From a virus, in the IMG/VR virus record IMGVR_UViG_3300027973_000030, positions 62,001-126,000 of that record: DNA of 64,000 nt; one strand, 5' to 3'. Positions within the stretch are counted from its first letter, which is position 1. Each line of letters begins with the position of its first letter. Position numbers and translations under genes: made by a program. The notes beneath the pieces were generated by a model. That model saw only the letters and a list, made by a program, of their open reading frames with translations, was not told the origin of the DNA and made no database searches. This document shows, one piece after another, positions 3,034 through 25,553 of the stretch.

Positions 3034-3036
3034 TTT

Positions 3037-3483: not shown

Positions 3484-3486
3484 TAT

Positions 3487-3654
3487 ATGAAAAAGTACGG
3501 AGTAGAAGTTCACTTGTTTAGTCCATCAAGAGTTTGTCTTGGTATAGACTTTATAGAAGGTGTGATACATGAAAAACATGGAGACAGTAACTATAAAGAA
3601 TTAGTCATAGGTTTCTTATTTTTTTATATAGAAATAACCGTAAGACAAAAGTAA
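3487..3654 (+). CDS. 55-residue hypothetical protein, possibly membrane-associated
   Basis: Begins three bases after the previous stop (TAA, TAT, ATG) and ends a few bases before the terminator stem. It encodes a polar first half (MKKYGVEVHLFSPSRVCLGID), then a hydrophobic stretch near the end (LVIGFLFFYIEI). Length, spacing and context support it as the last gene of the plus-strand cluster. No family recognised. Confidence 0.6.
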   Translation: MKKYGVEVHLFSPSRVCLGIDFIEGVIHEKHGDSNYKELVIGFLFFYIEITVRQK

Positions 3655-3657
3655 AAC

Positions 3658-3688
3658 AAAAGGAGAGACTAACAATCTCTCCTTTTTT
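3658..3688. terminator. Bidirectional intrinsic terminator between convergent clusters
   Basis: A perfect 11-bp inverted repeat (AAAAGGAGAGA at 3658-3668 and its complement at 3676-3686) with a 7-base loop. On the plus strand it ends in a run of six T; on the minus strand it ends in TTTTG. It lies between the last plus-strand gene and the end of the minus-strand gene at 3696, so it can stop transcription arriving from both sides. Confidence 0.9.
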
Positions 3689-3695
3689 ATTATAT

Positions 3696-6600: not shown

Positions 6601-8855
6601 TTTACAACATTAAGCATGCTCTGAACTTCACGCATAAGCTTATATTGTTCTTGAGATCCCAATCCTAACTCAGGAATTGCAGCTAAACCTCTATATGATT
6701 CTATAAACTTCTCAGCTTCTAACACTACATCTATATATCCAGGATTACCAACCTTAGTTGGGTCTGTGATATACTTATACATATTTGTTAATGTACTCTT
6801 TGTATAGTTAAGTAGTCTACCAAATGAGATATCTGGTCTACCAGCATCTTTCATTTCTATAGCAGATAACAATTCAGATATTTTATCAACGCTCTGCTCA
6901 CGACTCTCTTCAGAAAAAGATTCAAATCTAGCAGACTTATTTAAGTTCTTTAAATACAACTCACGTTGACGTAACTTGTCTACAAAAGTTTTGATAGTAA
7001 ACTGAAGCTTATCTAATAAGTCTCCAGGAATATCATCATCTGGTTGTTCTTCTTCACCATTAAGAAAGTCTTCATCATTAGCAGGGTTCTGTAAACCTAA
7101 AGCTTTTTTATATCCTTTAACTTTACTCTTAGAACCTTTAGTTTTTACTATCTTTTCTACAAAACTTACATTAGCACTCGGCTGGTGTACCTGGATACCT
7201 TCCCATTCAAAGTCAGTAACCTTTTGTTCTTTACCAACACCTTCTATAGAAAGTTTAATATGTAAAGTCTGTACTCCTTTAACAGGAAAACCATTAATTT
7301 CTGCAAGTCTTTTATAAGTACCAACTTGTATACCATGTTGTTGCTGAGTAGTAAGAGGACCTTCTAATACAGATTCTTCCCCTACCGGGAACTTTCTATT
7401 ACGATAGTTATCACTTTTGTAACTATTCTTAGAAACTTTTAGATCAGTGATAAAAATATCACCATTAGGTTTAACTATAAATATATCTAGAGATCCTGCT
7501 ATACCGCTCTGAGGATCTGAAAGAATCACCTGCGGTAGAATAATAGAACCATCTGACATTATACCAATAACATAGCCTTGTAAAGCTTCGTATGATCTTC
7601 TTGATATATCTTCTGATATAATACCAGTCATGTTTTCTTTAGCCTGGTCAAAGGTTTTACCTTCAATAATATCTTGAAGAGTTAAATCAAACTGAGAACC
7701 AAATAAACGGTTAAGCTCAAACATCCCTTCTGGGTCATCAAGCTTACCTTTGATAGCAGTAGTTACAGACTTATATGTTTGTCCTGTAACAGTATGTACA
7801 TAGATATGATTCTTCTCTTCTAAGATAACACGTCCTGGATCTTCCTGGCCCGCTTTAGCTTCAAAATAGACATCATCTACTATTTTCTTTTGTAGGTCAT
7901 TACCTAACTGTCTAATACGATTTTTAAAACCTCTTGTTCTATCATCTAACTGATATGATGGCGTAGCACTTACCGGCATCCCTGTTAGATCTATCTTACT
8001 TTCAGACATGCTTATCATATCTGCAATGTCTTGTAAGTTATAGTTTACTTCTAAATCAGATAACTTGATACTAAAAACATTATTAAACATTCTACGTAAC
8101 CAGTTTTTAAACTGGGTCAACATAGACTGTCTCACTCTAGCAACTTGACTATCAGATATATCACCTGCATCAGTCATGTTACCTGCAGCTAATTTACCAA
8201 GGTAACTAATCAAAGCTTCATCCATCTGATCTTCTTCAGATAAGTTACTGTAACCCTCAGTAGCTTTAACATTTTCAATCTCAGCTAATCCTTCTTCTAT
8301 AGACTGAAGCTCTTTCATAAGCTTGTCATATAGAGACTTATTATCAGTTTTTAATACACTTATGAACGGGTGTAGATACTCATGAAATGGAGTATCCTTA
8401 CTAATTTCTTTAGCAGAGTTAATATAAACTTTACCGTTTTGAAACTTAGCTTTCCACTCAGCATTTGGTTCACTAACCATTTGATAATCAACACCAAATC
8501 TTTCCTTAAGTCTATCAAGCATTTTAGTAGCTGTAGCCATATCTACTGGAACTTGTGGTGTTTCAATCTTAGGAGCTTCTATTGTAGGCTCAGATCCTAA
8601 GTATTTTCTAACTGAACTAATAAATGGCTCGTTATTACTATCTACTAAACCTTTAGCTTCTCCAGATTCAAAGTCACCAAAGTAAGCTTTAAAAGATGGC
8701 GTGTATGCAAGTAGATACATATCTACAGCTAACTCTTGATCTTTACCTACTTCAGGTAATGAGATGATGTCACTATACAATTTAGACTCAACACCATTAG
8801 GAGCCTTAACTGTTACAACTTCACCTTTATCATTTCTAAATATTTTACAAGCCAT
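3696..8855 (-). CDS. Giant virion protein with gluzincin and PD-(D/E)XK-like domains
   Basis: A 1,719-residue protein, last gene of the leftward structural block. Near the N-terminus it has an HExxH zinc-protease motif (H158, E159, H162 in FHEYLHPF) with a candidate third ligand downstream in DEALISYLG. A PD-(D/E)XK-like nuclease core follows (residues about 345-520): a YVHTVTGQTYKSVT opening, D457 in GSLDIF, D471-L-K473 in ITDLKVSK, and a later Q...Q..TYK segment as in RecB-like nucleases. The long middle part is helical and charged. Near the C-terminus is one probable membrane helix (LGFFMASVAMAYLFKMLASGL). The stop is TAG. By position and size it corresponds to the large co-injected proteins next to the virion RNA polymerase in crAss-like phages; nuclease and protease activities are inferred from motifs only. 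Confidence 0.75.
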   Translation of the reverse strand: MACKIFRNDKGEVVTVKAPNGVESKLYSDIISLPEVGKDQELAVDMYLLAYTPSFKAYFGDFESGEAKGLVDSNNEPFISSVRKYLGSEPTIEAPKIETPQVPVDMATATKMLDRLKERFGVDYQMVSEPNAEWKAKFQNGKVYINSAKEISKDTPFHEYLHPFISVLKTDNKSLYDKLMKELQSIEEGLAEIENVKATEGYSNLSEEDQMDEALISYLGKLAAGNMTDAGDISDSQVARVRQSMLTQFKNWLRRMFNNVFSIKLSDLEVNYNLQDIADMISMSESKIDLTGMPVSATPSYQLDDRTRGFKNRIRQLGNDLQKKIVDDVYFEAKAGQEDPGRVILEEKNHIYVHTVTGQTYKSVTTAIKGKLDDPEGMFELNRLFGSQFDLTLQDIIEGKTFDQAKENMTGIISEDISRRSYEALQGYVIGIMSDGSIILPQVILSDPQSGIAGSLDIFIVKPNGDIFITDLKVSKNSYKSDNYRNRKFPVGEESVLEGPLTTQQQHGIQVGTYKRLAEINGFPVKGVQTLHIKLSIEGVGKEQKVTDFEWEGIQVHQPSANVSFVEKIVKTKGSKSKVKGYKKALGLQNPANDEDFLNGEEEQPDDDIPGDLLDKLQFTIKTFVDKLRQRELYLKNLNKSARFESFSEESREQSVDKISELLSAIEMKDAGRPDISFGRLLNYTKSTLTNMYKYITDPTKVGNPGYIDVVLEAEKFIESYRGLAAIPELGLGSQEQYKLMREVQSMLNVVKDQINPALESYMKDLIAKKSNGTLTEEEITKILKEGFDISLDQYALGDLQNSKERLLAIAANLYTEASQKAMNRTDEFVRKIKTAGNKLAAAFGVKKIDFSFMLNYDKDGNFSGRYLQVIGQKYYDLKKDIFALVRDDKGEKMTYIPIENLEDAKGEDVLYNIELQRRKDKVRQFRQAEQLDDNNNIISGEHHKYSSDFINERALYEVPHGPSAKRGILSWVKKSTVSDEAYRKFRDKHYDRVEYMGAVFEKNGVYKGRTELKTGYFVKAKYIEIRETTLAGKEMRDERYVKLMNPTTEVERAQKEFFEVFNKEMRATLEMLPIDIQQKMLGKVARVKDNYINAAKRNGASTLGAIAKSVRSWFDVSGRVHSTQRLTDDEGVPVDNLPILYTNDPRNEARINAINEKITELKNAYVLEKSISNNVYEQELKKLELSLAIENGKINFNDINTDLVENLIAFRMMAEKFEQMSDIESSLLAIAKTVEKKKYFAANSIEEKFTKKGTDGESVYKKEGDSLANQRLKKWFKMVYYNNDEYDYSTFAQVSAKLQNITSLKGIGFNVFGAVNNYVMGRINNAIEAYGGVYFDRPAYFRATGEYNKDYMPGLMKGMGSKDGVYDLHKPNSKYEAVVKYFRMVRKYQENSGKVNSLELAYIFQEGGEFNVQSKTGIAVTMSSKFELTNKNTGEKMSIFDALNFDENTGELTLKPGFEIDEALRTKVTNYVYEVNKQIHGNYAWEDRMVIQSHWLGELGAQFHKWVYPMFRARFVKRYDNENLGEIEGRYRTFWNVMKHVYQTEQGFLAKTGGLLGILVPGSKTYKNMSEMEVRNMYKNIAELGFFMASVAMAYLFKMLASGLDDDDKEVKRLLNFMIYQQTRQQQEILTFIPVLGTSQQYQMAKNPLAALTTLRDYGEVLASAASIPFPPYDKNYYERGTHKGDLKAWKELKDVVPALGMLNRWEAFDNVKSFYIR

Positions 8856-8883: not shown

Positions 8884-11800
8884 TTATCCTGCTGCTTCAC
8901 AACCAGCGTCATCTTCTTTCTTACGCTCATCTAACTCTTTCCTTCTAGCTTCTAACAATATCTTCATATTTTTCTTAGCTTCTTCAGGATCAACTTCAAA
9001 GTTAGGAACTTTTATGTCAGTTTCCTCAGTAGCTTTAAAAGTATTTTTCATAGCTTTAGGTGACGTAGTTTCCTCTCTAGGAGCTTGATTTAGCATACGT
9101 AGTAACTCAGCAGGTTCTGTAATATCAGTTTGATATGGTGTGTTCTTACCATTTTCTACTTTAAAGAATGTAATCTTATTACCTATAAACTGAATACGAA
9201 TACCCCAATCTTGCTGTAGCTCATAAGCTTCTTGAGAAGTTAACACTGGATTTATATTTCCTATAATGTTATCTATAGATGCTTCAGCTTTAGATATAGA
9301 ATCATCAAGACCGTACTTCTTACTGTTTGCAGCTTGCCTATTTCTAAGAACTACATTAGTAGGCATCTCACCTGTTAAACCTCCAACCTTCCATTGTTTC
9401 TTAGAACCAGTGGGATCAAACTTCTCATAGATAGCTGTATTACTTAATGCTATAGTATCACCTACTTCTTTAATAAATGAACCAATACCTTCTGTAGGAG
9501 TAGACTTAGTAACAGTTTCTTGTAGTCTTGTAAGTTCTGCATTTAAATACTCAAATGTTCTAGGAGCTTTCTCTGAAAGTTTAGCTAATCCAACACCAAT
9601 TGGGGGAACTAATAATTTATTATATTTACCTGTATTCCAAGCTGCAATAATATTGTCTATATCTGCAGTAATTATACGTGCATTTTCTTCAAACTGATTA
9701 TCAGATTTAAAAGCAGAATCATCCATATTAGGAGCTTTCTTAGTAGAAATACCCATAGCATTAGGTTCTCCTCTCATCTCTTTAGCTTGACCACCCAAAC
9801 CACTTCTTTGATCATTATCTCCAAAGACATATAATGTACCTGGATTTTTCTTAAGATCTTCTCTTTTAAGAATTCTAGTAGTTCTTGAAAAAGCAGTAGC
9901 TGTATCTACTTTTTTAGCAGTGCTTCTAAGCTTATAGAAAATAGCCTTTTCATTAACTCCTTTTTGACCAGTTACAATTTTAATAGTATAAGGAAGTTCA
10001 ATATAGTATCTATTGTTACCTTTATCATCAGGACGATTTGTTAATTTAAAACCGTTAGCTTTAAGAACTTCTTTATTATAGTTTAACTTATCTAGGTCTT
10101 TTTGTTCAAATTTACCTGTAGCTATAACTTCATCTATAAATTCATTACCGTATTGATCAGTTAACAACATCATTTCTGGTTTACGAATACCACCAAACAA
10201 GTCAATTGCTAATATAGAATTATCTTCAGACTGCAGTATGACTTCAGGTACATATCCTTTAGGTTTATTCTTTTCAACCTCTGTTGAAGGTTTAGCACCT
10301 GCATAAACACGCTTGATATTAAATGCATTATTAATATTTGTAGTGTATAATCCAGTAAACTGATTAAACAACTCCATAGCTGTAGCACCAAATATTTCTT
10401 TATACTTCTCATTATCATTAATTAAAGCATCTTCTTTAAGTAATTGATGAGAAACTCCTGTTGCATCTAACAACTCTTTAAACATAGCAGGAGGAATAAA
10501 CTTAATAAAACTACCGCTCTTAAACTGACCACCGTCTTTAACTATAAGATAGTTAAACATGTTGTAAGCTAACTGTCTAGTCTTAGGATTACTATATATC
10601 TCAATAAAGCTATCTGCAATACGATTTTGTTCGTACTCTCCTAACTTAGCCCATGTATTAGACTCTACAGTGTTGATACCACCTCTAGACTTAGCATTGT
10701 AATATTCTTGACTGCTGTTAGCGTCATATAACTTTACAGGAATAATGTTTAAGAACTTATTAGCAAAGTAGTTCTTAGGTAATTGCTGTCTTATAGACTT
10801 AACTGTATCAATTATATCCATAAATCCATCACCTCTAGACACAGCTTCAGCATCATAAATCATAGCATTATCTAAACCGGCAAGCTTAGCTCCTTTACCA
10901 TTTACCTTTAAGTATTGTACATAAGCTTTGATACCTAGGTAAGCTATAATGTCACGCTTAAGTGTTGTGTTAAAAGTCTCAGTCTCTTTCTTAGTAACTT
11001 GTAAGTTGTTAAGAATTGTATTCTTAAGCCTTTGGAAGATGTAAGTCTTTTCTGTAAAGACACTCTTCTGAAGTTCTTTAATCTGATTCTTTATTCTTAT
11101 ATAGTTAGCTGTAATATTGTGATGTGGTTTAGCAGCTTCTTTACCTGTAAGTACTTGACGAACATCAAAAGGTATCTTACTCTTAGCAAAATCAACATCA
11201 CCCATATTCAAACCTAACATCTCTTCTTTCTCTTCTATCTTATCAATAGACTCATTACTTGTACCTAAACCTTTAGATAGTTTAAGTACTTGAGCTACAG
11301 CAGAATAGTATTCAGTTTGGTTATAAAACTGTAAGAAAGAATTGAATACTGCAAAGTCAACGTCTGAATTAGTACCTGCAGACTTAATATTATTCTCTAA
11401 CAAATCAGTAGTAATATCTTGTACTCCAGAATCTTTAGATAGTTTAGAAGCAAGTTCTTCTAATAGCTTATCACCCACTTGTGACTTAATTAACTTTTCT
11501 TCTTGAGTAGTTTTAATCTTTTTAGAAGCTACCTCAATACGTTTGTAGAACTCACGAACCGATGGCTGTAAGTTAAACATAAGTGCTGTTTCTAAAGGTA
11601 CACCTAGTGCCACCATATTAGATACAACACCTACAGCATTAATATTAAGACCAAGTCTAGCAGCTAAACGCTCTTTAGCGTTATCCGTCATAGCAGATAC
11701 TATAGCAGAAATATGATAGAATATACGCTCACCTTCGTAAGTGTCAGTATCTTTATTATATGCCTTATTATATTCATAACTGTTAAACTTATGACCATCT

Positions 11801-14800
11801 ATAGTAAGTACAAACATCTCTTCACCTGCACCATTAGTTTCTCTAATTCTAGTTTGTTTACCAAAACTATTCATAACAGAGTAAACCAACATAGAGTTTA
11901 CAGCTGGTCCAATATTACGAGCTCCTTCTTTATTATTTTTAAATGCTTTGTATTGACCAATCATTGAATCAACATCTGATCCAGTTTCAACAAGTACATC
12001 TCTTAATATAGGGAATCTATCTATAAAATTATCTACAACATCAATAAGAGGTTGAACCTCAGCTACTTGGAATGCTGATGGTATAGAACCATCTTTAGTC
12101 TTAGTAACTCCATCATTATTCTGTAGCTTTATTTTAGCTTCAAGAATACGATTGTTAAGAACACCGTTATTAAGTTCACCATATTGATCTACAGCTTTAG
12201 CATACTCATCAGCATTACTAGGTAATCCTAATTCTTTTAAAGCATTTTCAATCATCATTGATTCCAAAGACTTAGTTAATAAATCTTTAGCTAACTCTTC
12301 AAAGCTATCATAAATACCACCTTCTTCTGAATAGACTTCGTCATCTTGAGCTTCATCTCTAAGTTGTACAAGTTTAGTTTTAAAAGTTTTATTGTTAGCC
12401 TGTAAATACATTACATATTCTGTAAACTTTCCTTCTTTAGTTTTATCTGTACCGTACGCTACACGCTCTCCATCTTTACGATAAAAGTCCATGATTTGCA
12501 TGTACACCTTATCTATATCAAAGTCAGCTCCAGAGATCTCAATCAACTCATGAGGGAACACTGCAGTAGAACCATAGAATGCCGGTAAGAAATCTATAAG
12601 TTTAGTAGTAGCAAATGAGTGCTTATCCTGTGAAGGAATACGTACAGCAAATGCTTTTAAAGCAGCTTCTGAAATAGTACCATCTTCATTGTACATACGC
12701 ATATCTTCTCTAAAGTGAGGAGGCATCATATACTCTGTAAAGTAACCTGTGATATTACCTTGTTCATCAAACTCAGGTACATTATGTCTTAAATCATCTA
12801 TGTAAATATCACCAACTTTTAAACCATCAAACTCACGATCCATATCATTATTAAAACGCTTAGCTGCTTTTACTTCAGCTAGTAACGCTCTATCTTTTTC
12901 GTATTGACGTCTAGTAATAACTTCCCAACTTAATGGTTGACCATTCTCATCTAGTCTAGTTACACGCTTAGCAACCTTCATACCATAGTTAGAAGCTAAA
13001 GCTAAAGAGTGACCTGGAGCTTTCTCACTCATTACACCTTTAGAGAAATAAGCTAAGAACAATTGAGTAAACTTATCTAATGTAATAGGGTGGTTAAGAT
13101 CATACTTAGGAGTATACTCACCAGTTTCTTTATTCTTTATAGGAGTAAAGAACTCAATCAATTGAGGATCAGCACCTGTAGACTTAAGAGTTTCAACTTG
13201 TTTACTTAAGAACTTACCTAATGTAGGAGTAATCTGAGATTGTTTAAGAGACTTTTTAAGTTCTTTAAATGCTCCTTCAATATCAAACATCTCATCACGA
13301 GCTGAAAAGAAGTTATTCTTAACACGCTGTTCAGTATCAGATAAGTAGTTATCAATCACTTGACCTAAAGTCATCTCTTCTCCTTGGTAGTTAACTATAA
13401 GATCTCTTGACTGCTCAGCAATAATTAACTGCTTAGCTTGTGTAGGATCAGTAATTAACAACTTGTTAGAAGGGTTTTCTAACTGAAGTCTCCAGAAATT
13501 ATTATCATGCTCTACAAAATTCTCATTTGTAATTGAATTTACATCTGAAGCAATGTTTTGTTTAACCCCTTTAGAAGCAGACTTAGGTATAGCAAATGTA
13601 ATAGTCTCGTTAGCAGCTTCGTATCCTTCAAGTTTTTCTCTAAGTGTATGAAGTTCTTCGTAGCCTGGTCTTGCTATCCAACTATTACCTTGTGGAAGAG
13701 ATGTAAGTTGCTTAGTAAGTATAATACCAGAAGTTTTAATGTACTTTTTACCATCATTGTAAACAAGCTTGATTGAATTTGTCTGAGCATTATAAGTGAT
13801 AGATCCACCTCTTGTACGAGTGATGCCATCTTTATCTTTAACACGCTCTCCAAAAATATCTTTTACAGATACATCTTGACCTTTTTCAATCTTATCTAGT
13901 AATTCAGCTTGAGCTTGGTTTAATTTACCAAGTCCAAACAATGTATAGCGTAAAGCTTTTACAGACATCCACATCTGAGCATCTGCTTTCTCTTTATTCT
14001 TACCTGAAAACTTACCTTTGTATTGAGGATCAGTAATAGTAACTACGTGTGACTTAGTATTAGTATGATTGATGCCTAAGTTAGATGCTGTAACAACACT
14101 AGATATGTTATTACCAGAACCATTTAAACCTTTATTACGCTTAACTTCATCTATACCACCATCGTTCTTATAGTTCTCAGCAGCATCTCCAATAAACAAT
14201 TGTCTAGCTGACAATGTATTAATAAAGTTGTTTACTAGAACTTGACCAATGTTATGCTCAGCTGCACCTACTACCATGTTTAGCATGGCGTTTCTGTCTT
14301 TATCAGTTTTACCGTTGCTCTTAAATCCTTGGAAGACATAGTTATTAAGCAATTGACTATATAAAGTATCTTTCTCAGAAACTCCAATGATACCTTGATC
14401 TTTTAATAGTTTAACCATTTGATCAACTTGACCACCATCTCCCAACCAATATTTGTTGATTGCAGATAAGATCTCATCATTGTATTGAGCAATGTCTTCA
14501 CTATTCTTAGCAGCATCTTCTAAAGTAGAAGTTAAACTACCAAGCATATTACCCATCTTAATAAACTTAAGACCTCTCTCTTCACCATTATGATATCCTT
14601 CTATGATACCATTAGTATATCTACCGCTTTCTATTTCACTATTTACTCTAGCTATTCTCTCAAACTCACGTTTTACTTCGTTAAACAATATTTTTTCAGC
14701 ATCTTTAGTAAGAAGTATTTCACCTTTCTTATATTCAACAGATCTAATTACAGGCAAGTTTAACATATCTGCGGTATTAGATGCTTCTAAGACAGCTAAT

Positions 14801-17800
14801 AACACTGAAGATGTCATAAACTCTTTACGAGGCTGACCATCTGCAGCAGGGATCACATGCTTTTTATTGTTTGCATATAACTCAAATAGACTAATCAAGA
14901 ACTCACGGTCAGACATGCTACCGTAAGTAACTCCATCATTTTGGTTTACATTAAGACGCTTATCTTCTGTTAAAGTTCCATCTTCATTCTTAGTAAGACT
15001 AGATGCTTTAATACCATCTATACGAGAAACCTTAATAGTATCAGCAATATAGTTAAAGAAAGGACTATTTAATAAGTGGTTGGTAGCCAAGAACTTATTC
15101 TTCTTAAGTTCATTACGGAACTCTTCTTTCTGTAATTCAGCAGCTCTCACTAAATTAAATGTAGGTAACTGATGAGAGTATACAAGTTCACCTTCTGCAT
15201 TCTTATAAGAAGTAGAAGACACTTGTTCATCAAATACAGCATTACCAGCAGCTATCTTAGTCAAACGACCAATGGCAGCATCTACATCATCTTCAACATC
15301 TTCTTCTTGATTTTCAAAATCTTCTTCAGATTGAATCTTAGGTTCTTCAGCAGCAGTTAATGTAGAGACTTGTTGCTCAGATTCAGCAATCTTATCTGGA
15401 TCAATATTAGTACCAAATGGATTTTTACCACTTCTAATAGCAGCACCAATTTCTCTAGCGTCATCTTCAGTCATTACCTCAGTACCCTCAAATGCTTTAA
15501 GAATTCTTAAGTCATCATCTGTAAGATCTTTAGTATCTACACTTGATAGATAACTATACTTGACAAATAATGGAGATAAAGAAATACCTAACTCATCTTT
15601 TAAAGAAAGTATAATATTATCAATTTGAGTGGTAAGTACGTCTTTACTATATACATTTCCTTTCTTTAATATAGTAGCAAGCTTATCTAAAGCAACTGTT
15701 TTAGTCTTTATAAACTTAGAAAGACTCTCAGAATCTCTAGGCGTATCTGCATATTGATCTGCATACAGTCTCAAGAAAGCATTATACCATATAGAAAATT
15801 GATTTCTAGCAGCTCCTTTACGGTTAGCTTCACTAACTCTAGTTTCTTTCTTAGAGATATCTTTATTAATAAAGTAGTAATCAACAGAGAATTGATTAAA
15901 TCCTTTTACAACAGCTTGGAATAAATTAGCTTGATTCTTGTTACCGATATCTACAAAGTTTCCATCTTCATCATATTGTAGATCAACGTCATTAGAAAAC
16001 TTAGTCCAGAACTTTCTAGCTTCTGGATTATGCTCAGCAAATATTTTTAAACGCTCAAGCATCTGATACTGATCAGTAGAACCTGCTACAGCTTTAAGAA
16101 TACCATTATATAATACGTTTGCGTTAACAGCTTCAATTAATACTTCTTCAGTAGGAGCACCATCTTCAGAAACAAATCTAGTGTTACCAAACTCATCAAC
16201 TGTTTCTTCTGTAATAGTAGATAGGTATTGACGTAGTTCTTTAGATAGAGAACCATATCCTCCAATACTATAAGTTTCTTTCCAGTTATCTGTAGTTACT
16301 CTGTCTCCGTATTCATCTACTTGCTGGTCAAATTCATCAGATTCTAGCTCTTCTTGATAACCCATAATACGAGTATGCTCACGTATAGAATCTTTAAGAG
16401 TTTCTATTAACTCAGGATTACTAAATATTTTATATTTCTGATCTAATTTTTCTATAGCTTTTTGCATAGCTAAAGCATTTTCAAACCTTTCTACAAACTC
16501 ATCTGATTGATAGTAAGGGTTAATTCTTCTATCATATAGGTTAGCATAGTCAGCAAGTACACCATCCATGATATCTACACTATGGTCAGTTAATCCAGCT
16601 TCAGACATACGTCTATGATATATAGCTGCAATAGTAGAAGCTAATACGTCTCCTTCTTGTTGACTTAAGTATATAGGAATACGTTCTCTCTCACCATCTT
16701 CATTATCTATAACAGTATACCCAATCTGAATAGCTTTTAAAGCTGTCTGAGTAACTGCAATATTAGGACCAGTAGTAAATCTATTAGTAGCTAATGCAGC
16801 ATTCTTATAGTTACCTTTCTCTATAGATTGAAATAATCTATCTAAAGGAGATGCCTTAATGTTCTTGAAAAAGCTTCTAATAAAGTCTAATAACTTTCTA
16901 AAGAAACCTTTATTTTCTGCAGAAGTAGGAGTCTTAATATCAGACTTCCATGCATCAAACTTATCTGCTAAATATTCTTCATATACACGCTCTTCTAATT
17001 GTTCTTCAGTAAGCTTAGAATAGAACTCTGGTTTAGAAGCTATTAATTCTTGTTTAAGTTTAGATAAGCTCTTACCTTGTTGACGAAGCTCTTGCTTAGC
17101 AATATTCAAGTACTTATCAATCTGTTGATCAGTAAGAAGCATACGGAAAATACCGTGGAATGCTTCATGATATTTAAAAGGGGTATTTTTACCTACAGCA
17201 ATCTTACCTTCTAGTCTATTGTTTAACTCATTCATATGAGTATAAAACATACCAACTGTCACACCTTCTGCCTTCATCTTACGAGCCATATTACTAAGCT
17301 CTTCTACAGAAATAAATTCTGGTAAATGTTGTTGAGCCCACTTTCTAAACTCATTAATATGTACAGCGTCTTCTCCTGTAAGTCTATCTGACACTTTAAG
17401 AGCAGCACTGTTATTAATCTGAGCAATCTCTTGATTAACAGCAGCTACACGTGGATCAGCATTATAGTTATGCTTCATCACATCAACTCTTTTCATACCA
17501 GATTTAAGAAGCTCACCTTCTATCTCATTGATTAAAGCATCTTTCTTATCACTAAGTTCTTGTAATCTATCTTGAGCACTAGTTTTCTTTTGCTCAGCTT
17601 TACGTCTAGCTAAAAACTCTGCTTGTGCAGCAGCAATAGCTGGAGGTATAACCACACCTTCTAATGCAGCATCTGATGGTTCTTGATTTACTTTAGGTTT
17701 ACTAGTAGGTACTATAACATTGCTAGATGGAGAAATCTGTTGTTTCTTAGGGTATACAAATATACCTTCATTCTTAACTACAGGTTTATTTACACCCGAT

Positions 17801-20800
17801 ATTAACTGACGGTATACAGAAAGAGGAGCACTTTCGTCTAAAGAATTTTTAAAACTATTTTTGTTTAATTTAACATTACCAATCTTATCTACATATAGCT
17901 GATTATAGTCTTCTATAGCACGATTAATTCTTTCAATTAAATCTGTAGAATCTTTTAACTGTAAAGGTTTATTAAAATCTGTAGATTCTGAAATAGTTAA
18001 TTTCATCCTTTTTGGATTTTTTTGACCCTTAGTATAGAAAGCAAATTCTATTCTAATATTTCCAGAAGGGTGCATTTCAAAATTAACTTTAAGTCCACGT
18101 TTACCTGCTACAGCTATATAAATAGAGTCATTAATTTCAGAGTTTATATCATTAGCAGCTGTAGGATCAATAGGACCCATGTATTTTTTCTTAGTTTCAG
18201 GATCTGTCTTCTCTTCTATGTTATTCTCTTTCAATACTTTAGACTTCTTGTTTAATTTATCAACAAGAATATCTAAGTCTTCAGATGGAAGTACACTAGA
18301 CTGTAATTCTATAAACTTAATAGCACCATTAGGTAAAGCTACTACTGCTACATAACGACCATAGTTTCTAAGCTTATCTTCACCACCTTCAAACCTAGCA
18401 GCTTCAATTCTTTTTTCTAACTCTTCAGTATCAACAGCATTAGTATGTGGAGACACAAGACTTTCTTCATACATACCATTTCCTAAATACTTAGTTCTGC
18501 GGTCAATAATATATGTGAACCCATCAATAGTGCTATGATCTAATTCATCTAACGATACTCTAGCGTTTTTATCTGTAGCAAAATCATACTCACCGGCAGA
18601 TGGTACAATGTTAAACAATGTATTTACCTCATCATTAGTTAAGGTAACATCTGTAGCTCCATCAACTAACTTATTAGTGATAGCACTATAAAACTTCATA
18701 CCTGAAATATAGTTCTCCTTAAAAGTTTGGAACTCTTTATTTACATCTTTATTCTGAGTATCAAAGATTTGTACAAATTGTTCTTTAGTAATATTACTTA
18801 ATGCAACTGGTTTACCAGCATTATCTAAATAAGTGTACCTATTATAATATGTAGCAAACCCAATAGTTTGACCACCATACATAATCTCAACCATGTATGG
18901 TTCTGGGTTCTGCTGTAGATGTTTATTTGGATCTTGACCATCTTGACCTGCTGCTAAAGTAGTTTGACCTAATGTACTATTCTTAGTAATTTTAATAGTA
19001 ACACCAGACTGAAAAGCTTCTTTAGAAGTATTATAAATAAGCTCTCTTAATCTTTCATTAGCTTGTTCTTGTTCCTCGTTCTTATTTCTTTTAGCATAGA
19101 TTCTATTAAGTTCATTAACTCTTTTTAATCTAAAAGCGTTAGGGTTTTCTGGTTCTATAGCAGATTCAAATGCAGCTTCTAGTTTATATCCAGCAAGACT
19201 TTCAATAGTAGTTGTGGATGTTATACCCTGCATAGGTTGAATAGTAATCTTCAACTTACCTTGAATATTCTTAGGAGCTTTTTGTGTAAGCACTCTAAAC
19301 TTCCTACCTCTTGAGTCTACAAGAATATCACCATATTTCAATGTTTGACCATCAAACTGATATTCAGTATACTTATCACTATTAACTTCTGCTAAAGCAT
19401 CAAAGATAACTTTAGCTTCTTCTATAGTAGGATAAGTAACAGCAGCTTCATAACGAGGAAACTTTTTAGCATCTAATGTAATATCTGTAACAGGATCTCC
19501 AGCTTTATTAACAATGTAATAGAACTTCCCTGCTTTAGGATCTTCTTCTTCAATAAGATAAATACCATTCTTCTTTTCAAGAACTTTAGCAGCTTCTATT
19601 AAGCCGTCTGGTACATCTTCTGTAGTATCTCCAGGTTGTAAAGGATCTTTCTTTTTTACAGGAGGTTTTCCAGTAAACTCATTGTTTACTTCCTCAATAT
19701 GTTCTTCATTAAGTTTCTTACCTGTAGCATCTATAGCTTCCATTAATCTTTGGTGCACCTTTACAAACTGTATAGGATTAGCCATAATATTATAAGCATC
19801 TACATACTCTTTACTATCATTGTTAAGATCAATATACTCTGTAAGATTCTTATAGATCTCTTGGATATCATCAGCTTTTACAACAGCATCTATACCAGAC
19901 TCTCTATTCTTAGCATTAATATACTTTTCAAAACTCTTAGAAGCTTTATTGTATTTACGTTTCTGTCCAGGCTCCATGCTCTTAAGACTCTCATGATGTT
20001 CTAACCACTCTTGTAAAGATTCTAATTGTTCTTTCTTAGATTTAAGAAGCTCTCTTCCTGCAGCATCCTTTTTTGGTACAGCAGTTAGGCCCTCAATCTC
20101 AGCTTTAAGAATGTCTATTTCTTTCTGTGTGTTTTGAATAACACCTAAGTTACGAAAAGCTGTACCTACAGAAGCACCAATTTGTGGTGTATTTGCCATT
20201 TCAGTTTGTAACTTAACAGCACGCTGAGCTGCTTTATGAGACTTGTAATCATTAGTAGCCATTATTTCAATAGCATCATCTAATGCACGCTTAGCCATTA
20301 AAGCTGTCTTACGTTCAGGTGTACCCTCTTTGTACATATCAACTAGTACAGAGTCACCATATTTATCTTTAAGAGCTTTCCAGTTTTTATGGAATGTCTC
20401 TACATCATCTGCAATATTATTAAAGAACTCTTTAGTTGATTTAATATTATCTGTAGTTTTATCTAAACCAAAACCTTGTTTAAACTCTTCATCAGTAAAT
20501 GCTTCACCATAACTACGTAATGTATCAAGAACTGATTCTGCCATGTCTGTTTTAATAGCAGCAGAAACCATCTTAGCAAAACCTGAATTCTTATTATTAG
20601 TGTAAACATATTGGTCTCTGTTTGCAACAGCTTCCTCCATGTTACTAGCCACCTTATTTTGTACTTTAATATTAGCTATATGTTCTGGTAAGAACTTATT
20701 AGGGTTATCATAGTATGCATTAACTTCTTTTACAGCTTCATTAATATCTTTATACCGAGATGCTCTTTGATCAGAAGTAGTAGCAGCATACATTTTAGCT

Positions 20801-22422
20801 TTGCCTACAGTATAGTTTATAGGTGATAGCATACGACCTGTTAAAGCTCCCATTAAGAAAGTCTTTAAACCTTGTATATTAGCTTGAGAATCAATAGCTT
20901 TATCTATTGATTTATCCATACTTGTACCTTTGTACCCATGGTATAAATCATAATAGTAATCTTGTAACGCTACATTAGAACCTTCTTGGAATAATTCCTG
21001 AAGACCTTCTGAAGCTTCCCACTTGAATACATTTTTACCTATAGATTTAGTAGCTTGCCATGCGGCTGTACGCCCACCAAAATCTCTAGATACTTGACCA
21101 AGTAAACCTAATGTTCCTAACTTACCTTTTGTATATAATTTAGTTGTTTCTTCTGCTGCTTCTTTACCAACACGTCTTCCAGTAACTTTTAATACATCAT
21201 CTGCAAATTCACCAGTGGCTCCAAATAAACCACGACTAGCTCCAAATTTACTAAACATGTTATCAAACTGTAAGCGGTTACTTAACATTAAGATACCTGT
21301 ATTAACTGTAAAGTTATCTTGAGCTGCCGCTTGAGCAGAAGATTTCATACGTTCTTCTAAAGCAAAACTAGGAGCTTGTCCTGTTCTATGAAGTTCTTCA
21401 TCATATAGTTTAGTGTATAATTCTCCATAAGTACCAGCAGCTTCCATACGAGCTTCAGTCATAGCCATATTAGCTTCTGCTAAAGCACGTCTTACACCAC
21501 CTATACCAATAGCTGCCATCTGTCCAATACCAGCTCCAGCTCTACCATACTTAGATAACATATATCCAGTATCAGCAAAAGGAACAAGTTGTCTTGCAGC
21601 TTGTACAAAACCTTCTCCTACACTACGAGCTTTCCATACAGGATTGCCAAGTCTAACTAAATCTGTAGCAATCTCAGCTTTAGTTATTACTCTTCCAAAA
21701 GTTGCAGGAGCTCTGATACCAAGTTTAGCTAATGAAAATTCTGTAGATAAACCAAATGTAATTAACTCTTCTGATAAAAACTGTCCAATAGTACCTATAG
21801 CAAAACCAGATTGCTGTAACATATCACCAAAAAACTTACGGTTAAGAACACCACTCTCAGATTCAGGTGTAGAATAGATAGCATATCTATTCATAATATC
21901 TTTAGTAGCTTTATCTTGCTCCATTAAATGTTCTGGAGTACCTAATAAATCTTGTTTAGCTTCATCCCAACTAGTACTATATATAGCATCTGCCATATTA
22001 CCCCAACCTTTCCAACCTTCTATAAAAGTATTACCTGCTAATCTAAACATTCCACTTAGACCATTAGACCATACATCTCCCCAAGTTTGATAAGCTCCAT
22101 ATTTATACTCATTATTAGTTTGACCACTTGGATCAAAACCTAATGCATGAAAATTATCTGAACTTTTATATCTATCTACCTGTGCAGCATCATAATCAAA
22201 AAAAACAGGTGCTGATAATGTATCTAAACTAGTAGCTTGGTTTTTAAAAGCATTAAGACCGTTTTGTACAACATCACCTATAGGAGCATTATTAGATTGT
22301 GCGTAACCGGGGCTACCCATCAAATCTAACATACTTGTGTTATTTTGTGGTAATGAAAGTATAGGATCTTGAGAGTAAACTCCTTGTAATTCTTGAGGTA
22401 TTACACCAGTTTCTAATGCCAT
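8884..22422 (-). CDS. Giant virion RNA polymerase polyprotein of crAss-like type
   Basis: 4,512 residues, about a fifth of the window. The key feature is GADFDIDKVY (D3300, D3302, D3304), the metal-binding DxDxD loop of multisubunit-type RNA polymerases, preceded by RIPSQDKHSF and FPHELIEIS; in cellular beta' subunits the equivalent stretch reads R.PTLHR...NADFDGDQ. The closest precedent is gp66 of Cellulophaga phage phi14:2 (about 2,200 residues), a single-chain virion RNA polymerase that is injected and transcribes early genes. Other regions: an N-terminal part with hydrophobic and Gly/Ala-rich helices (to about residue 550) that could help cross membranes; a gluzincin motif HEAFH (H1752-H1756) with a downstream EERVYEEYLADKF glutamate cluster; and a C-terminal domain (about 4190-4305) with YVFGDNDQRSGLGGQAKEM and VPPIGVGLAKL, resembling phage macro-like proteins. 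Processing into smaller pieces is possible but not shown. Confidence 0.88.
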   Translation of the reverse strand: MALETGVIPQELQGVYSQDPILSLPQNNTSMLDLMGSPGYAQSNNAPIGDVVQNGLNAFKNQATSLDTLSAPVFFDYDAAQVDRYKSSDNFHALGFDPSGQTNNEYKYGAYQTWGDVWSNGLSGMFRLAGNTFIEGWKGWGNMADAIYSTSWDEAKQDLLGTPEHLMEQDKATKDIMNRYAIYSTPESESGVLNRKFFGDMLQQSGFAIGTIGQFLSEELITFGLSTEFSLAKLGIRAPATFGRVITKAEIATDLVRLGNPVWKARSVGEGFVQAARQLVPFADTGYMLSKYGRAGAGIGQMAAIGIGGVRRALAEANMAMTEARMEAAGTYGELYTKLYDEELHRTGQAPSFALEERMKSSAQAAAQDNFTVNTGILMLSNRLQFDNMFSKFGASRGLFGATGEFADDVLKVTGRRVGKEAAEETTKLYTKGKLGTLGLLGQVSRDFGGRTAAWQATKSIGKNVFKWEASEGLQELFQEGSNVALQDYYYDLYHGYKGTSMDKSIDKAIDSQANIQGLKTFLMGALTGRMLSPINYTVGKAKMYAATTSDQRASRYKDINEAVKEVNAYYDNPNKFLPEHIANIKVQNKVASNMEEAVANRDQYVYTNNKNSGFAKMVSAAIKTDMAESVLDTLRSYGEAFTDEEFKQGFGLDKTTDNIKSTKEFFNNIADDVETFHKNWKALKDKYGDSVLVDMYKEGTPERKTALMAKRALDDAIEIMATNDYKSHKAAQRAVKLQTEMANTPQIGASVGTAFRNLGVIQNTQKEIDILKAEIEGLTAVPKKDAAGRELLKSKKEQLESLQEWLEHHESLKSMEPGQKRKYNKASKSFEKYINAKNRESGIDAVVKADDIQEIYKNLTEYIDLNNDSKEYVDAYNIMANPIQFVKVHQRLMEAIDATGKKLNEEHIEEVNNEFTGKPPVKKKDPLQPGDTTEDVPDGLIEAAKVLEKKNGIYLIEEEDPKAGKFYYIVNKAGDPVTDITLDAKKFPRYEAAVTYPTIEEAKVIFDALAEVNSDKYTEYQFDGQTLKYGDILVDSRGRKFRVLTQKAPKNIQGKLKITIQPMQGITSTTTIESLAGYKLEAAFESAIEPENPNAFRLKRVNELNRIYAKRNKNEEQEQANERLRELIYNTSKEAFQSGVTIKITKNSTLGQTTLAAGQDGQDPNKHLQQNPEPYMVEIMYGGQTIGFATYYNRYTYLDNAGKPVALSNITKEQFVQIFDTQNKDVNKEFQTFKENYISGMKFYSAITNKLVDGATDVTLTNDEVNTLFNIVPSAGEYDFATDKNARVSLDELDHSTIDGFTYIIDRRTKYLGNGMYEESLVSPHTNAVDTEELEKRIEAARFEGGEDKLRNYGRYVAVVALPNGAIKFIELQSSVLPSEDLDILVDKLNKKSKVLKENNIEEKTDPETKKKYMGPIDPTAANDINSEINDSIYIAVAGKRGLKVNFEMHPSGNIRIEFAFYTKGQKNPKRMKLTISESTDFNKPLQLKDSTDLIERINRAIEDYNQLYVDKIGNVKLNKNSFKNSLDESAPLSVYRQLISGVNKPVVKNEGIFVYPKKQQISPSSNVIVPTSKPKVNQEPSDAALEGVVIPPAIAAAQAEFLARRKAEQKKTSAQDRLQELSDKKDALINEIEGELLKSGMKRVDVMKHNYNADPRVAAVNQEIAQINNSAALKVSDRLTGEDAVHINEFRKWAQQHLPEFISVEELSNMARKMKAEGVTVGMFYTHMNELNNRLEGKIAVGKNTPFKYHEAFHGIFRMLLTDQQIDKYLNIAKQELRQQGKSLSKLKQELIASKPEFYSKLTEEQLEERVYEEYLADKFDAWKSDIKTPTSAENKGFFRKLLDFIRSFFKNIKASPLDRLFQSIEKGNYKNAALATNRFTTGPNIAVTQTALKAIQIGYTVIDNEDGERERIPIYLSQQEGDVLASTIAAIYHRRMSEAGLTDHSVDIMDGVLADYANLYDRRINPYYQSDEFVERFENALAMQKAIEKLDQKYKIFSNPELIETLKDSIREHTRIMGYQEELESDEFDQQVDEYGDRVTTDNWKETYSIGGYGSLSKELRQYLSTITEETVDEFGNTRFVSEDGAPTEEVLIEAVNANVLYNGILKAVAGSTDQYQMLERLKIFAEHNPEARKFWTKFSNDVDLQYDEDGNFVDIGNKNQANLFQAVVKGFNQFSVDYYFINKDISKKETRVSEANRKGAARNQFSIWYNAFLRLYADQYADTPRDSESLSKFIKTKTVALDKLATILKKGNVYSKDVLTTQIDNIILSLKDELGISLSPLFVKYSYLSSVDTKDLTDDDLRILKAFEGTEVMTEDDAREIGAAIRSGKNPFGTNIDPDKIAESEQQVSTLTAAEEPKIQSEEDFENQEEDVEDDVDAAIGRLTKIAAGNAVFDEQVSSTSYKNAEGELVYSHQLPTFNLVRAAELQKEEFRNELKKNKFLATNHLLNSPFFNYIADTIKVSRIDGIKASSLTKNEDGTLTEDKRLNVNQNDGVTYGSMSDREFLISLFELYANNKKHVIPAADGQPRKEFMTSSVLLAVLEASNTADMLNLPVIRSVEYKKGEILLTKDAEKILFNEVKREFERIARVNSEIESGRYTNGIIEGYHNGEERGLKFIKMGNMLGSLTSTLEDAAKNSEDIAQYNDEILSAINKYWLGDGGQVDQMVKLLKDQGIIGVSEKDTLYSQLLNNYVFQGFKSNGKTDKDRNAMLNMVVGAAEHNIGQVLVNNFINTLSARQLFIGDAAENYKNDGGIDEVKRNKGLNGSGNNISSVVTASNLGINHTNTKSHVVTITDPQYKGKFSGKNKEKADAQMWMSVKALRYTLFGLGKLNQAQAELLDKIEKGQDVSVKDIFGERVKDKDGITRTRGGSITYNAQTNSIKLVYNDGKKYIKTSGIILTKQLTSLPQGNSWIARPGYEELHTLREKLEGYEAANETITFAIPKSASKGVKQNIASDVNSITNENFVEHDNNFWRLQLENPSNKLLITDPTQAKQLIIAEQSRDLIVNYQGEEMTLGQVIDNYLSDTEQRVKNNFFSARDEMFDIEGAFKELKKSLKQSQITPTLGKFLSKQVETLKSTGADPQLIEFFTPIKNKETGEYTPKYDLNHPITLDKFTQLFLAYFSKGVMSEKAPGHSLALASNYGMKVAKRVTRLDENGQPLSWEVITRRQYEKDRALLAEVKAAKRFNNDMDREFDGLKVGDIYIDDLRHNVPEFDEQGNITGYFTEYMMPPHFREDMRMYNEDGTISEAALKAFAVRIPSQDKHSFATTKLIDFLPAFYGSTAVFPHELIEISGADFDIDKVYMQIMDFYRKDGERVAYGTDKTKEGKFTEYVMYLQANNKTFKTKLVQLRDEAQDDEVYSEEGGIYDSFEELAKDLLTKSLESMMIENALKELGLPSNADEYAKAVDQYGELNNGVLNNRILEAKIKLQNNDGVTKTKDGSIPSAFQVAEVQPLIDVVDNFIDRFPILRDVLVETGSDVDSMIGQYKAFKNNKEGARNIGPAVNSMLVYSVMNSFGKQTRIRETNGAGEEMFVLTIDGHKFNSYEYNKAYNKDTDTYEGERIFYHISAIVSAMTDNAKERLAARLGLNINAVGVVSNMVALGVPLETALMFNLQPSVREFYKRIEVASKKIKTTQEEKLIKSQVGDKLLEELASKLSKDSGVQDITTDLLENNIKSAGTNSDVDFAVFNSFLQFYNQTEYYSAVAQVLKLSKGLGTSNESIDKIEEKEEMLGLNMGDVDFAKSKIPFDVRQVLTGKEAAKPHHNITANYIRIKNQIKELQKSVFTEKTYIFQRLKNTILNNLQVTKKETETFNTTLKRDIIAYLGIKAYVQYLKVNGKGAKLAGLDNAMIYDAEAVSRGDGFMDIIDTVKSIRQQLPKNYFANKFLNIIPVKLYDANSSQEYYNAKSRGGINTVESNTWAKLGEYEQNRIADSFIEIYSNPKTRQLAYNMFNYLIVKDGGQFKSGSFIKFIPPAMFKELLDATGVSHQLLKEDALINDNEKYKEIFGATAMELFNQFTGLYTTNINNAFNIKRVYAGAKPSTEVEKNKPKGYVPEVILQSEDNSILAIDLFGGIRKPEMMLLTDQYGNEFIDEVIATGKFEQKDLDKLNYNKEVLKANGFKLTNRPDDKGNNRYYIELPYTIKIVTGQKGVNEKAIFYKLRSTAKKVDTATAFSRTTRILKREDLKKNPGTLYVFGDNDQRSGLGGQAKEMRGEPNAMGISTKKAPNMDDSAFKSDNQFEENARIITADIDNIIAAWNTGKYNKLLVPPIGVGLAKLSEKAPRTFEYLNAELTRLQETVTKSTPTEGIGSFIKEVGDTIALSNTAIYEKFDPTGSKKQWKVGGLTGEMPTNVVLRNRQAANSKKYGLDDSISKAEASIDNIIGNINPVLTSQEAYELQQDWGIRIQFIGNKITFFKVENGKNTPYQTDITEPAELLRMLNQAPREETTSPKAMKNTFKATEETDIKVPNFEVDPEEAKKNMKILLEARRKELDERKKEDDAGCEAAG

Positions 22423-25400: not shown

Positions 25401-25553
25401 TAGTACCGAGCTGTACGCTGATTTAACTTTACTAGCTCCCTGTTCAAACAGAGATTGCTTCCTCTGAAGCATCTTGTCATAGAAGTTAAAGTCCGGTTTA
25501 TATAAAGCCGGTTCAGGAAAGGTCTCTGGTATATAAGGAAGGTATTGTGCCAT
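22452..25553 (-). CDS. Large virion cargo-type protein
   Basis: A 1,033-residue protein starting MAQYLPYIPETFPEPALYKPDFNFYDKMLQRKQ. This opening, with many Pro and Tyr residues followed by a long helical region (residues about 25-330), is characteristic of large proteins located just before the RNA polymerase in crAss-like phages. The rest alternates charged helices with beta-rich segments; no enzyme motif or membrane helix was found. From its place between two predicted cargo genes I infer that it is packaged in the virion or shapes the internal cargo. The function is otherwise unknown. It is separated from the RNA polymerase gene by 29 bases and is likely co-transcribed. Confidence 0.75.
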   Translation of the reverse strand: MAQYLPYIPETFPEPALYKPDFNFYDKMLQRKQSLFEQGASKVKSAYSSVLNAQLSNKNNIPLRDQYIKDAQEKLVKLSSSDLSLMENVNAAESIYAPFWQDKFIVQDAAMTKSYQNEIQKYASWKDSAKPEDREKYNNIGMMYLQNGLSKLQNADRTPEAFSAVEMRKAEPFTNIEAYLQKMAAADKLEVKYDSPDGPYLISTENGERSEKKYATWATAMIGNNFQGQFNVTGTVENEERIKILKKSNPNLTDVEIKSLIAKDAVAELNQGFTKRHQEVDVEMARIDSLLTSISQTGGPNNKAMFDNLVSKRSELIAKKAVINEEYKGFDQGKDKTLEYVSNAPNQYFAVLAKQRLVNNWSSGRASIDQKLIKENSAWVAASTADLNNRKFELEVMKAGYEREKQLWEMANPKKVGGSETIVDANGNIVPKPGPGGEPVNNSLSYIGLSGIDITKNAETAYDAWNKTQKQSFIQSHNLIFDQRGVLGFATKLGLSQMEISEVATLMQKEVATDGAYVATAAQTAAGNKLTAALLTSQAVQVSGINPKKLTIDDTGLVRRALMAYTEDYLKQRSTVAADGSDIPFTESEQEALIRYGLAVEQLDTYNANEDNRQKLMQDRLANNPEYASVVKKNSNGKASLLTISELAADMPSLELFNKSDRTTKTLSKEDVARYYMQGKLNQTSQGEIVLDDNIYWINKVDGKESSTAWGMIGNTEALWNDMYNNVLTPKFGTSEDFSKKIKAANLLVVPDLLMYKNMTGRQGGIFSFNIMPNKTMGNGDIAVLQMYQSVQSGNVDKVTDKDGKVLDTEMITAVRALLSSEKNLEEYGVGQYIPQGIDGKKTFRFIFNKPISSESKDEVGGKSLSSITKDTEVNFILKENTGTLLDQLPNNTGYQVYGAMLRGKEIKSDSILEAAGFKYLITPNTTGLDAAPQYVTVDLRYKVRNNKKDPQTGRVDTSVEEKSYLSTINLSGENAKGPDEIVGKLKSLYYENMQENRRVQLEYDKVKGTNGGTVWDPKNALKQAGLSHLIKQ

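What the first reader, a model, noticed from the sequence alone, without database searches (positions are those of the whole stretch)
8884..22422. Single 4,512-codon virion RNA polymerase fused to protease and macro-like domains
The DFDID loop (D3300-D3304) in a beta'-like context identifies a crAss-like virion RNA polymerase, but the chain is about twice as long as phi14:2 gp66. Extra parts include a hydrophobic N-terminal region, a gluzincin (HEAFH at 1752) and a C-terminal macro-like domain. This suggests an injected polyprotein in which the protease could release the polymerase after entry.
Basis: partly seen in the sequence, partly recalled or inferred. Interest (0 to 1): 0.7.

Follow-up and report, generated by a model that had tools for sequence, protein, structure and literature searches.

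The report
Phage polymerase chain with cysteine couplings
The giant protein is a normal crAss-like phage polymerase packed in the virus particle, but it revealed an apparently undescribed rule: wherever such phages split this chain into separate proteins, and only there, a lone cysteine sits on both facing ends, as if the pieces were coupled like railway wagons for injection.

Summary
The ORF is real (minus strand, 8884-22422, 4512 aa). HEAFH1752 and DFDID3300 are present and the order is conserved in relatives (64/64 DFDxD, 62/64 HExxH). An AlphaFold2 model of residues 2700-3790 matches only the phi14:2 virion RNA polymerase (6vr4, E 8e-27). The giant single chain is not new: public Suoliviridae records hold 4.3-4.9 kaa versions, and crAssphage annotations already name a zincin-RNAP partner. 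Obligatory self-release by the protease is not supported: 14 of 80 fused chains have no HExxH, and phages with separate genes keep the zincin.

The new result is a cysteine rule. The 4512-aa chain has one cysteine, C4508, four residues from its end; the next protein (1719 aa) has one, C3. Call the modules A (zincin), B (catalytic) and C. Across 154 non-redundant loci, B has a cysteine at its facing end at every split junction (A/B 53 of 53; B/C 109 of 109) and at no fused one (0 of 78; 0 of 34). Partners match; outer chain ends lack it; complete A-B-C fusions have none. Ten of ten independent changes agree. Most likely a disulfide couples the pieces so that the cargo is ejected as one thread. 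The pattern is shown; chemistry and purpose are inferred.

The parts
8884..22422 (-). Giant virion RNA polymerase chain, modules A+B fused, 4512 aa, one cysteine
   Evidence: ORF and translation; A-region profile match to crAss001 gp47 99.5%, B-region match to phi14:2 g066 99.0% and to Suoliviridae giants 100%
17155..17169 (-). HEAFH (residues 1752-1756), zincin-type metal site
   Evidence: HExxH in 62/64 distinct relatives; same motif in crAss001 gp47 and Suoliviridae giants
16975..16980 (-). Glu1815-Glu1816, invariant, candidate third metal ligand (EEYLAD)
   Evidence: invariant over 62 sequences; in a helix after the HEAFH helix of the model
11053..14325 (-). RNA polymerase core, residues 2700-3790
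   Evidence: AlphaFold2 pLDDT 86.5, pTM 0.87; Foldseek 6vr4_A E 7.6e-27
12511..12525 (-). DFDID (residues 3300-3304), RNAP catalytic loop
   Evidence: DFD[IV]D in 64/64 relatives
9538..9876 (-). DUF7831 domain (residues 4183-4295), accessory
   Evidence: Pfam PF25176 E 1.4e-35; patchy in relatives
8899..8901 (-). Codon of Cys4508, the only cysteine of the chain, 4 residues before the end
3696..8855 (-). Module C (third RNAP-block protein), 1719 aa, one cysteine (C3)
   Evidence: clade profile matches crAss001 gp49 at 100%; cysteine count
8847..8849 (-). Codon of Cys3 of module C (MAC...), the facing cysteine
22452..25553 (-). Upstream protein (1033 aa, no cysteine) in the position of the ejection cargo proteins; no coupling cysteine towards the chain
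   Evidence: position compared with cr4_1 and crAss001
42531..44068 (-). CrAss tail ring proteins 1 and 2 (context: Crassvirales-type virion)
   Evidence: Pfam CrAss_Ring_1 E 8e-12, CrAss_Ring_2 E 2e-21

Best explanation
The ORF is the fused A+B part of the three-part virion RNA polymerase cargo (A zincin module, B catalytic module, C third module) of a Crassvirales-type phage. Shown: in this virus group, wherever the A-B-C chain is divided into separate proteins there is a cysteine near the C-terminus of the upstream piece and one at about position 3-6 of the downstream piece, while fused junctions and outer chain ends lack them; in the window's clade these are nearly the only cysteines of the whole cargo. 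In the window they are C4508 of the giant and C3 of the next protein. Inferred: the two cysteines form a disulfide in the virion, so that A, B and C are one covalent thread that is pulled unfolded through portal and tail in fixed order; the reducing host cytoplasm can later undo the link. Gene fusion gives the same continuity by a peptide bond, so fused junctions need no cysteine. The window's phage uses both: a peptide bond for A-B and a cysteine coupling for B-C.
For: Cysteine counts: window chain 1 in 4512 (C4508), next protein 1 in 1719 (C3). Relatives with complete 3' end: 58 of 61 have Cys in the last 9 residues. Two of the three exceptions have the missing tail, with its Cys, in a following ORF (L086, L090); the third (L108) has B and C fused and no cysteine. 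Cys frequency is 5e-5 per residue elsewhere against 0.11 in the last nine; 52/52 next proteins have Cys in the first 10 residues and 0/52 near their own end. Wider set of 154 non-redundant loci: A/B split 53/53 with N-terminal Cys on B, fused 0/78; B/C split 109/109 with C-terminal Cys on B, fused 0/34. The 53 include L131 and L140, which length alone misfiled as fused; with the first ATG only, 52/53 against 0/78. Partner ends, where in view on the same strand: 39 pairs Cys/Cys and 42 none/none with 3 mixed upstream; downstream 103 Cys/Cys plus 4 whose start lies slightly outside the search rule. Independent changes agree 6/6 for A/B and 4/4 for B/C. Breaks elsewhere also carry Cys on both sides: upstream of the zincin (L191, L183), after B (L069, L103), inside C (L186), and at L196 inside the RNAP. 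Named genomes in four families obey it, e.g. phi14:2 g067 ..TIC / g066 MAC..ECK / g065 MSC. Not a nucleotide effect: in crAss001 A lies on the opposite strand from B and C. Disulfides are resolved elsewhere in the crAss001 virion (PMC10172136). Ejected proteins of N4, P22 and T7 are nearly cysteine-free: N4 vRNAP 0 in 3500 aa.
Against: No disulfide has been seen; most cargo is not resolved in the crAss001 map (PMC10172136). Host cytoplasm is reducing, so the bond would have to form late or after lysis. A metal site or other thiol chemistry would give the same sequence pattern. Some Intestiviridae B-C proteins have up to 15-20 internal cysteines, so cysteine avoidance is not universal. The A protein of L158 has its only cysteine 23 residues from the end instead of 0-8. 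Fused forms cannot be released by reduction, so release cannot be the general purpose. The primary paper on gp66 (Drobysheva et al.) could not be read here, so it is not certain that the termini were never discussed.
Confidence: 0.6

Rival explanations
1. Injected polyprotein cut by its own zincin: HEAFH-domain cleavage near residue 1900 releases the polymerase after entry (first reader's model; also a general idea for phage and plasmid polyvalent proteins).
For: Zincin motif conserved in 62/64 close relatives and located next to the A/B border; zincin processing of injected multidomain proteins was proposed by Iyer et al. 2017 (PMC5512222).
Against: Zincin is kept where A and B are already separate proteins; 14 of 80 fused chains with complete N-terminus have no HExxH upstream of the catalytic loop; the coupling cysteines imply selection for continuity. 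No cleavage site was identified. The zincin model had no significant PDB match.
Confidence: 0.15
2. Disulfide staple of a folded complex: the same cysteine bond, but its purpose is to hold folded A, B and C together in the capsid or to help assembly, not to thread them out as one chain.
For: Facing termini must be able to lie close in space, since fusion is tolerated at the same places; virion disulfides stabilise the crAss001 tail and portal vertex (PMC10172136).
Against: Strict confinement to facing chain ends and strong loss of cysteine elsewhere in the window's clade suggest linear continuity rather than a general staple; breaks at very different positions all have it.
Confidence: 0.2
3. 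Other thiol chemistry at the facing ends: shared metal ion, thioether or acyl modification, or a mark used in packaging.
For: Single cysteines at both ends fit any pairwise thiol chemistry.
Against: One cysteine per end leaves too few ligands for a zinc site without others; no lipidation signal seen; outer chain ends (A N-terminus, C C-terminus) lack it.
Confidence: 0.12
4. By-product: ejected proteins purge cysteine and the floppy tails are merely where one is tolerated.
For: N4, P22 and T7 ejection proteins are almost cysteine-free.
Against: Tolerance does not give 109/109 and 53/53 presence at split junctions, 0/78 and 0/34 at fused ones, and absence from the outer ends.
Confidence: 0.03

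Closest known systems
phi14:2 gp66 virion RNA polymerase (PDB 6vr4), Crassvirales Steigviridae
   Same: Catalytic core fold and DxDxD loop; gp66 itself has only two cysteines, at positions 3 and 2179 of 2180
   Different: gp66 is module B alone; g067 (in the place of A) and g065 (C) are separate proteins; g067 has no HExxH
Suoliviridae giant RNAP ORFs (cr4_1, cr50_1, cr53_1, cr118_1, cr125_1, cr113_1, cr114_1)
   Same: Same A+B fusion of 4.3-4.9 kaa, zincin motif then DFDxD in the five checked, separate C protein, coupling cysteines at B/C
   Different: Five of the seven read TAG as an amino acid (the window does not); a few more internal cysteines
Crudevirinae 'RNAP associated protein fused to zincin protease' plus B-C fusion (crAssphage ZA, cr110_1)
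   Same: Same three modules, zincin at the end of A, coupling cysteines at the A/B split
   Different: B and C are fused instead of A and B
N4 vRNAP (Schitoviridae)
   Same: Giant single-chain virion polymerase with an HExxH motif, ejected, no cysteine at all in 3500 aa
   Different: Polymerase core related to single-subunit (T7-type) RNAPs, not double-psi barrel (own knowledge)
Polyvalent proteins of Iyer et al. 2017 (PMC5512222)
   Same: Injected multidomain chain with a zincin
   Different: Processing by the zincin is a proposal there and is not supported as obligatory here

Membership tests
Crassvirales virion RNA polymerase (phi14:2 gp66 type) | DxDxD catalytic loop in a beta'-like core | tested here: met
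   DFDID3300; 64/64 relatives
Crassvirales virion RNA polymerase (phi14:2 gp66 type) | Fold of gp66 (two double-psi barrels in one chain) | tested here: met
   6vr4_A E 7.6e-27, TMq 0.66, 1153 aligned columns; the individual barrels were not inspected
Crassvirales virion RNA polymerase (phi14:2 gp66 type) | Packaged in the virion and transcribes early genes | not testable with these tools
   Homologues found in virions by mass spectrometry (PMC10172136)
Suoliviridae-type A+B fusion | Zincin module and catalytic module in one ORF followed by a separate C protein | tested here: met
   Profile match of B region to Suoliviridae giants 100%, 1.5e-39; gene order. The architecture is met; membership of the phage in Suoliviridae was not tested
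Order Crassvirales (the phage) | Crass-specific virion genes | tested here: met
   CrAss_Ring_1 and CrAss_Ring_2; TerL match to phi14:2 E 5e-15 elsewhere in the record. Family not assigned
Gluzincin protease | HExxH plus downstream Glu ligand | tested here: met
   HEAFH1752 and invariant E1815/E1816; metal geometry not measured
Gluzincin protease | Zincin fold | tested here: inconclusive
   Model pTM 0.44, no significant PDB match
Self-processing polyprotein | Cleavage between modules | not testable with these tools
   Indirect evidence is against an obligatory role
Macro domain | Macro fold and ADP-ribose site | not tested
   Only DUF7831 found

The most novel reading that the evidence does not exclude
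Crassvirales eject their A, B and C polymerase cargo as one covalent protein thread; where the thread is not a single polypeptide, dedicated terminal cysteines couple the pieces head to tail by reversible disulfides. This would be a modular 'protein train' not described for any virus as far as could be checked here, in which gene fusion and cysteine coupling are interchangeable.
Probability: 0.5. Interest if true: 0.9.

Novelty: new variant of a known kind. Interest (0 to 1): 0.75.

Why it matters
How multi-megadalton protein cargo passes a narrow phage tail in the right order, unfolds and ends up as a working complex is an open question for crAss-like, N4-like and P22/T7-like phages. The cysteine rule gives a concrete, cheap test (non-reducing gel or cross-link mass spectrometry of an existing phage, two point mutants) of whether the cargo leaves as one thread. 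It also gives an annotation tool: a start MxC or a terminal Cys marks a true break in the RNAP cargo, whereas its absence flags a frameshift, intron or assembly error (as seen at L086, L090 and L029).

Tried and rejected
1) Giant ORF as anomaly or misassembly: rejected, conserved in dozens of contigs. 2) Translation on the + strand: the ORF is on the minus strand. 3) Search of whole chain in Pfam, PHROGs and PDB by sequence: only DUF7831/phrog_2072; upstream 1033-aa protein gave no named phage hit. 4) Zincin structure search: no significant match. 5) Thioredoxin gene in the own record as helper for disulfides: none found (the record may be incomplete). 6) Nucleotide-level cause of the junction cysteines: rejected, since distances to the stop (0-8 residues) and gaps vary and A lies on the opposite strand in crAss001-type phages. 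7) A first tree count of 10 B/C changes was inflated by four loci read through TAG; corrected. 8) Apparent exceptions followed up: L086, L090 (tail and Cys in the next ORF), L107 (same) and L029 (frameshift), L035 (GTG start, Cys at 3), L131/L140/L126/L153 (split, long B with cysteine-rich inserts, inteins suspected; A partner end with Cys seen in each) and L146 (split by its B-type start; A partner outside the locus), L138/L217/L184/L091 (fragments, set aside). 9) Literature for terminal cysteines: none found in the open library.

Full report
WHAT IS THERE. The window is part of a 131,294-bp virus record. The ORF lies on the minus strand, 8884-22422, 4512 codons, with HEAFH at 1752 and DFDID at 3300. 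Nearby genes include crAss tail ring proteins 1 and 2, and the record encodes a TerL related to that of phi14:2, so this is a Crassvirales-type phage; I did not assign a family. Sequence libraries recognise only DUF7831 at 4183-4295.

IDENTITY. Profile alignment of residues from about 1850 to 4120 gives phi14:2 g066 at 99.0%, crAss001-type B proteins at 99.2% and Suoliviridae giants at 100% over nearly the whole length; the N-terminal part matches crAss001 gp47 at 99.5%. An AlphaFold2 model of residues 2700-3790 built on 64 relatives has pLDDT 86.5 and pTM 0.87, and its only PDB match below 1e-3 is 6vr4_A, the phi14:2 virion RNA polymerase (E 7.6e-27). The next ORF (3696-8855) belongs to a family matching crAss001 gp49 at 100%. 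So the block is A (zincin), B (catalytic), C, with A and B fused.

IS THE SIZE UNUSUAL? No. Suoliviridae records hold the same single ORF: cr4_1 4491 aa, cr50_1 4774, cr53_1 4645, cr118_1 4946, cr125_1 4502, cr113_1 4328, cr114_1 4272. Crudevirinae have A separate ('RNAP associated protein fused to zincin protease') and B-C fused. Steigviridae have three proteins. A review calls giant RNAPs of up to about 6000 aa a hallmark of the group (PMC10136315). In IMG/VR the A+B chain, with the zincin motif roughly 1,400-1,900 residues before the catalytic loop, recurs in almost every relative retrieved with the window's own core.

PROTEASE RELEASE. The zincin motif is conserved (62/64), with an invariant Glu-Glu about 60 residues on, but its model has no significant fold match. 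It is kept in phages where A and B are already separate, and 14 of 80 fused chains with a complete N-terminus have no HExxH upstream of the catalytic loop. Release by self-cleavage is thus neither the only reason for the domain nor obligatory. Whether it cuts anything cannot be told from sequence.

THE CYSTEINE RULE. While comparing ends of the proteins I found that the 4512-aa chain has exactly one cysteine, C4508, and the 1719-aa next protein exactly one, C3. Of 61 relatives with a complete 3' end, 58 have a cysteine in the last nine residues. The exceptions explain themselves: L086 and L090 have the tail, with its cysteine, in a following ORF, and L108 has B and C fused behind a long N-terminal part, 5143 aa, no cysteine at all. 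Outside the last nine residues the cysteine frequency is 5e-5 per residue; inside it is 0.11. All 52 next proteins have a cysteine in their first ten residues, 49 have no other, and none has one near its own C-terminus.

GENERALITY. In named genomes of four families (Steigviridae, Intestiviridae, Suoliviridae, Crevaviridae) the rule holds at every split junction that could be read. Examples: phi14:2 g067 ends ..NTIC, g066 runs MAC...QECK with no other cysteine, g065 starts MSC; crAss001 gp47 ends ..RCNS, gp50 starts MSKRC, gp49 starts MAKKC, although gp47 is on the opposite strand. In cr110_1, ZA and the C protein of bajarodcaudo virus the annotated start lies some codons upstream of the MxC start. 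Where B and C are fused, the fused protein ends without a cysteine; where A and B are fused the N-terminal one is missing.

COUNTS. I then took 185 loci with a B ORF of at least 1900 aa, reduced to 154 by similarity, and classed each junction by profile hits, position of the zincin and length. A/B: 78 fused, none with an N-terminal cysteine; 53 split, all with one. The split set includes L131 and L140, which length alone had misfiled as fused; inspection shows a B-type start and an A protein ending in Cys on the other strand. Taking the first ATG only, 52 of 53 against 0 of 78. B/C: 109 split, all with Cys in the last ten; 34 fused, none. Fragments (L091, L138, L217, L184, L086, L090; also L196 at its N-terminus) were set aside after inspection, and six A/B states were assigned by hand. 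Some classes rest on length where no profile matched, so the counts are not wholly blind. On a tree of the RNAP core, A/B changes state six times and the cysteine follows six times; B/C changes four times and follows four times, three of them on well-supported branches. A-B-C fusions (L167, L170, L173, L176, L189, and L166 cut at its 5' end) have no cysteine at all. Partner ends were read where they lie on the same strand.

BREAKS AT UNUSUAL PLACES. The cysteine follows the break, not the domain: L191 and L183 are cut upstream of the zincin, L069 and L103 after B with an extra 707/859-aa piece that has cysteines at both ends and no others, L186 inside C; all have a cysteine at the facing ends. 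In L196 the B ORF starts MAC only 265 residues before the catalytic loop and the long ORF before it ends ..KKCE, with a short ORF in between. L158 is the loosest case, with the A protein's only cysteine 23 residues from its end.

CONTROLS. Other large ORFs in the same loci have a Cys in the last ten residues in 6 of 62 and an MxC-type start in 5 of 62. N4 vRNAP (3500 aa), N4 gp51 and gp52, P22 gp7, gp20 and gp16, and T7 gp15 and gp16 have no cysteine; T7 gp14 has one, at position 2. So these ejected proteins avoid cysteine, and crassviruses place it at breaks. The distance to the stop varies from 0 to 8 residues and the intergenic gap varies, which speaks against a nucleotide signal, as does the opposite-strand arrangement.

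MECHANISM. Best reading: the facing cysteines form a disulfide in the mature particle, making A-B-C one covalent thread that leaves the capsid in order and unfolded, in line with the partial unfolding during extrusion that the crAss001 structure paper proposes for its cargo (PMC10172136). That virion does contain resolved disulfides in tail and portal vertex. Homodimer links are unlikely, because the outer ends (A N-terminus, C C-terminus) do not carry a cysteine. Shown: the pattern and its dependence on splitting. Inferred: disulfide, time of formation, and purpose.

VERDICT. The finding as given is a real but known architecture, a new member of the giant RNAP type seen in Suoliviridae. The cysteine coupling rule that it led to is robust, appears undescribed and is directly testable.

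Noticed in passing
L108 (Zeaxanthinibacter sp. PT1, NZ_JAQPCN010000001, 939843-962632): A crassvirus-like RNAP chain (B and C fused, 5143 aa, no cysteine) lies in a 1.6-Mb bacterial contig; a phi14:2-like TerL (29% identity) was found in the same genome at C1:910592-912001. It looks like an integrated crassvirus relative.
   Followed up: partly
window 30961-37107 and 27688-29526: Between the tail stabilisation-like protein and the RNAP cargo lie a cysteine-free 2048-aa protein with Amidase_2 and L-Ala-D-Glu peptidase matches and a 612-aa protein with a weak extensin-like match; possibly a wall-degrading ejection module.
   Followed up: no
L007 and L008, upstream of the RNAP core (first 300 columns of alignment A1): Several hundred extra residues upstream of the RNAP core in two relatives; they contain no cysteine, so probably not an intein.
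   Followed up: no
L013, L023, L026, L109, L115: Five of the Suoliviridae RNAP genes read TAG as an amino acid (38-78 TAG codons in the giant ORF), whereas the window and nearly all its relatives use the standard code.
   Followed up: partly
L225 (phage T7), gp14: The only cysteine among T7 ejection proteins gp14, gp15 and gp16 is at position 2 of gp14; may be worth a look in the light of the crassvirus rule.
   Followed up: no
window 49734-50969: A 411-aa protein in the structural block has 20 cysteines, in contrast to the cysteine-free cargo proteins.
   Followed up: no
L227 (phage N4) gp50: N4 vRNAP has an HELVH motif at 2228 and no cysteine in 3500 residues; the N4 preprint PMC12633501 notes the HExxH in its C1 domain.
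   Followed up: partly
L024 (crAssphage ZA) 961-3348: The first cargo protein upstream of A ends ..KQSCR, its only cysteine; its possible partner was not sought.
   Followed up: no
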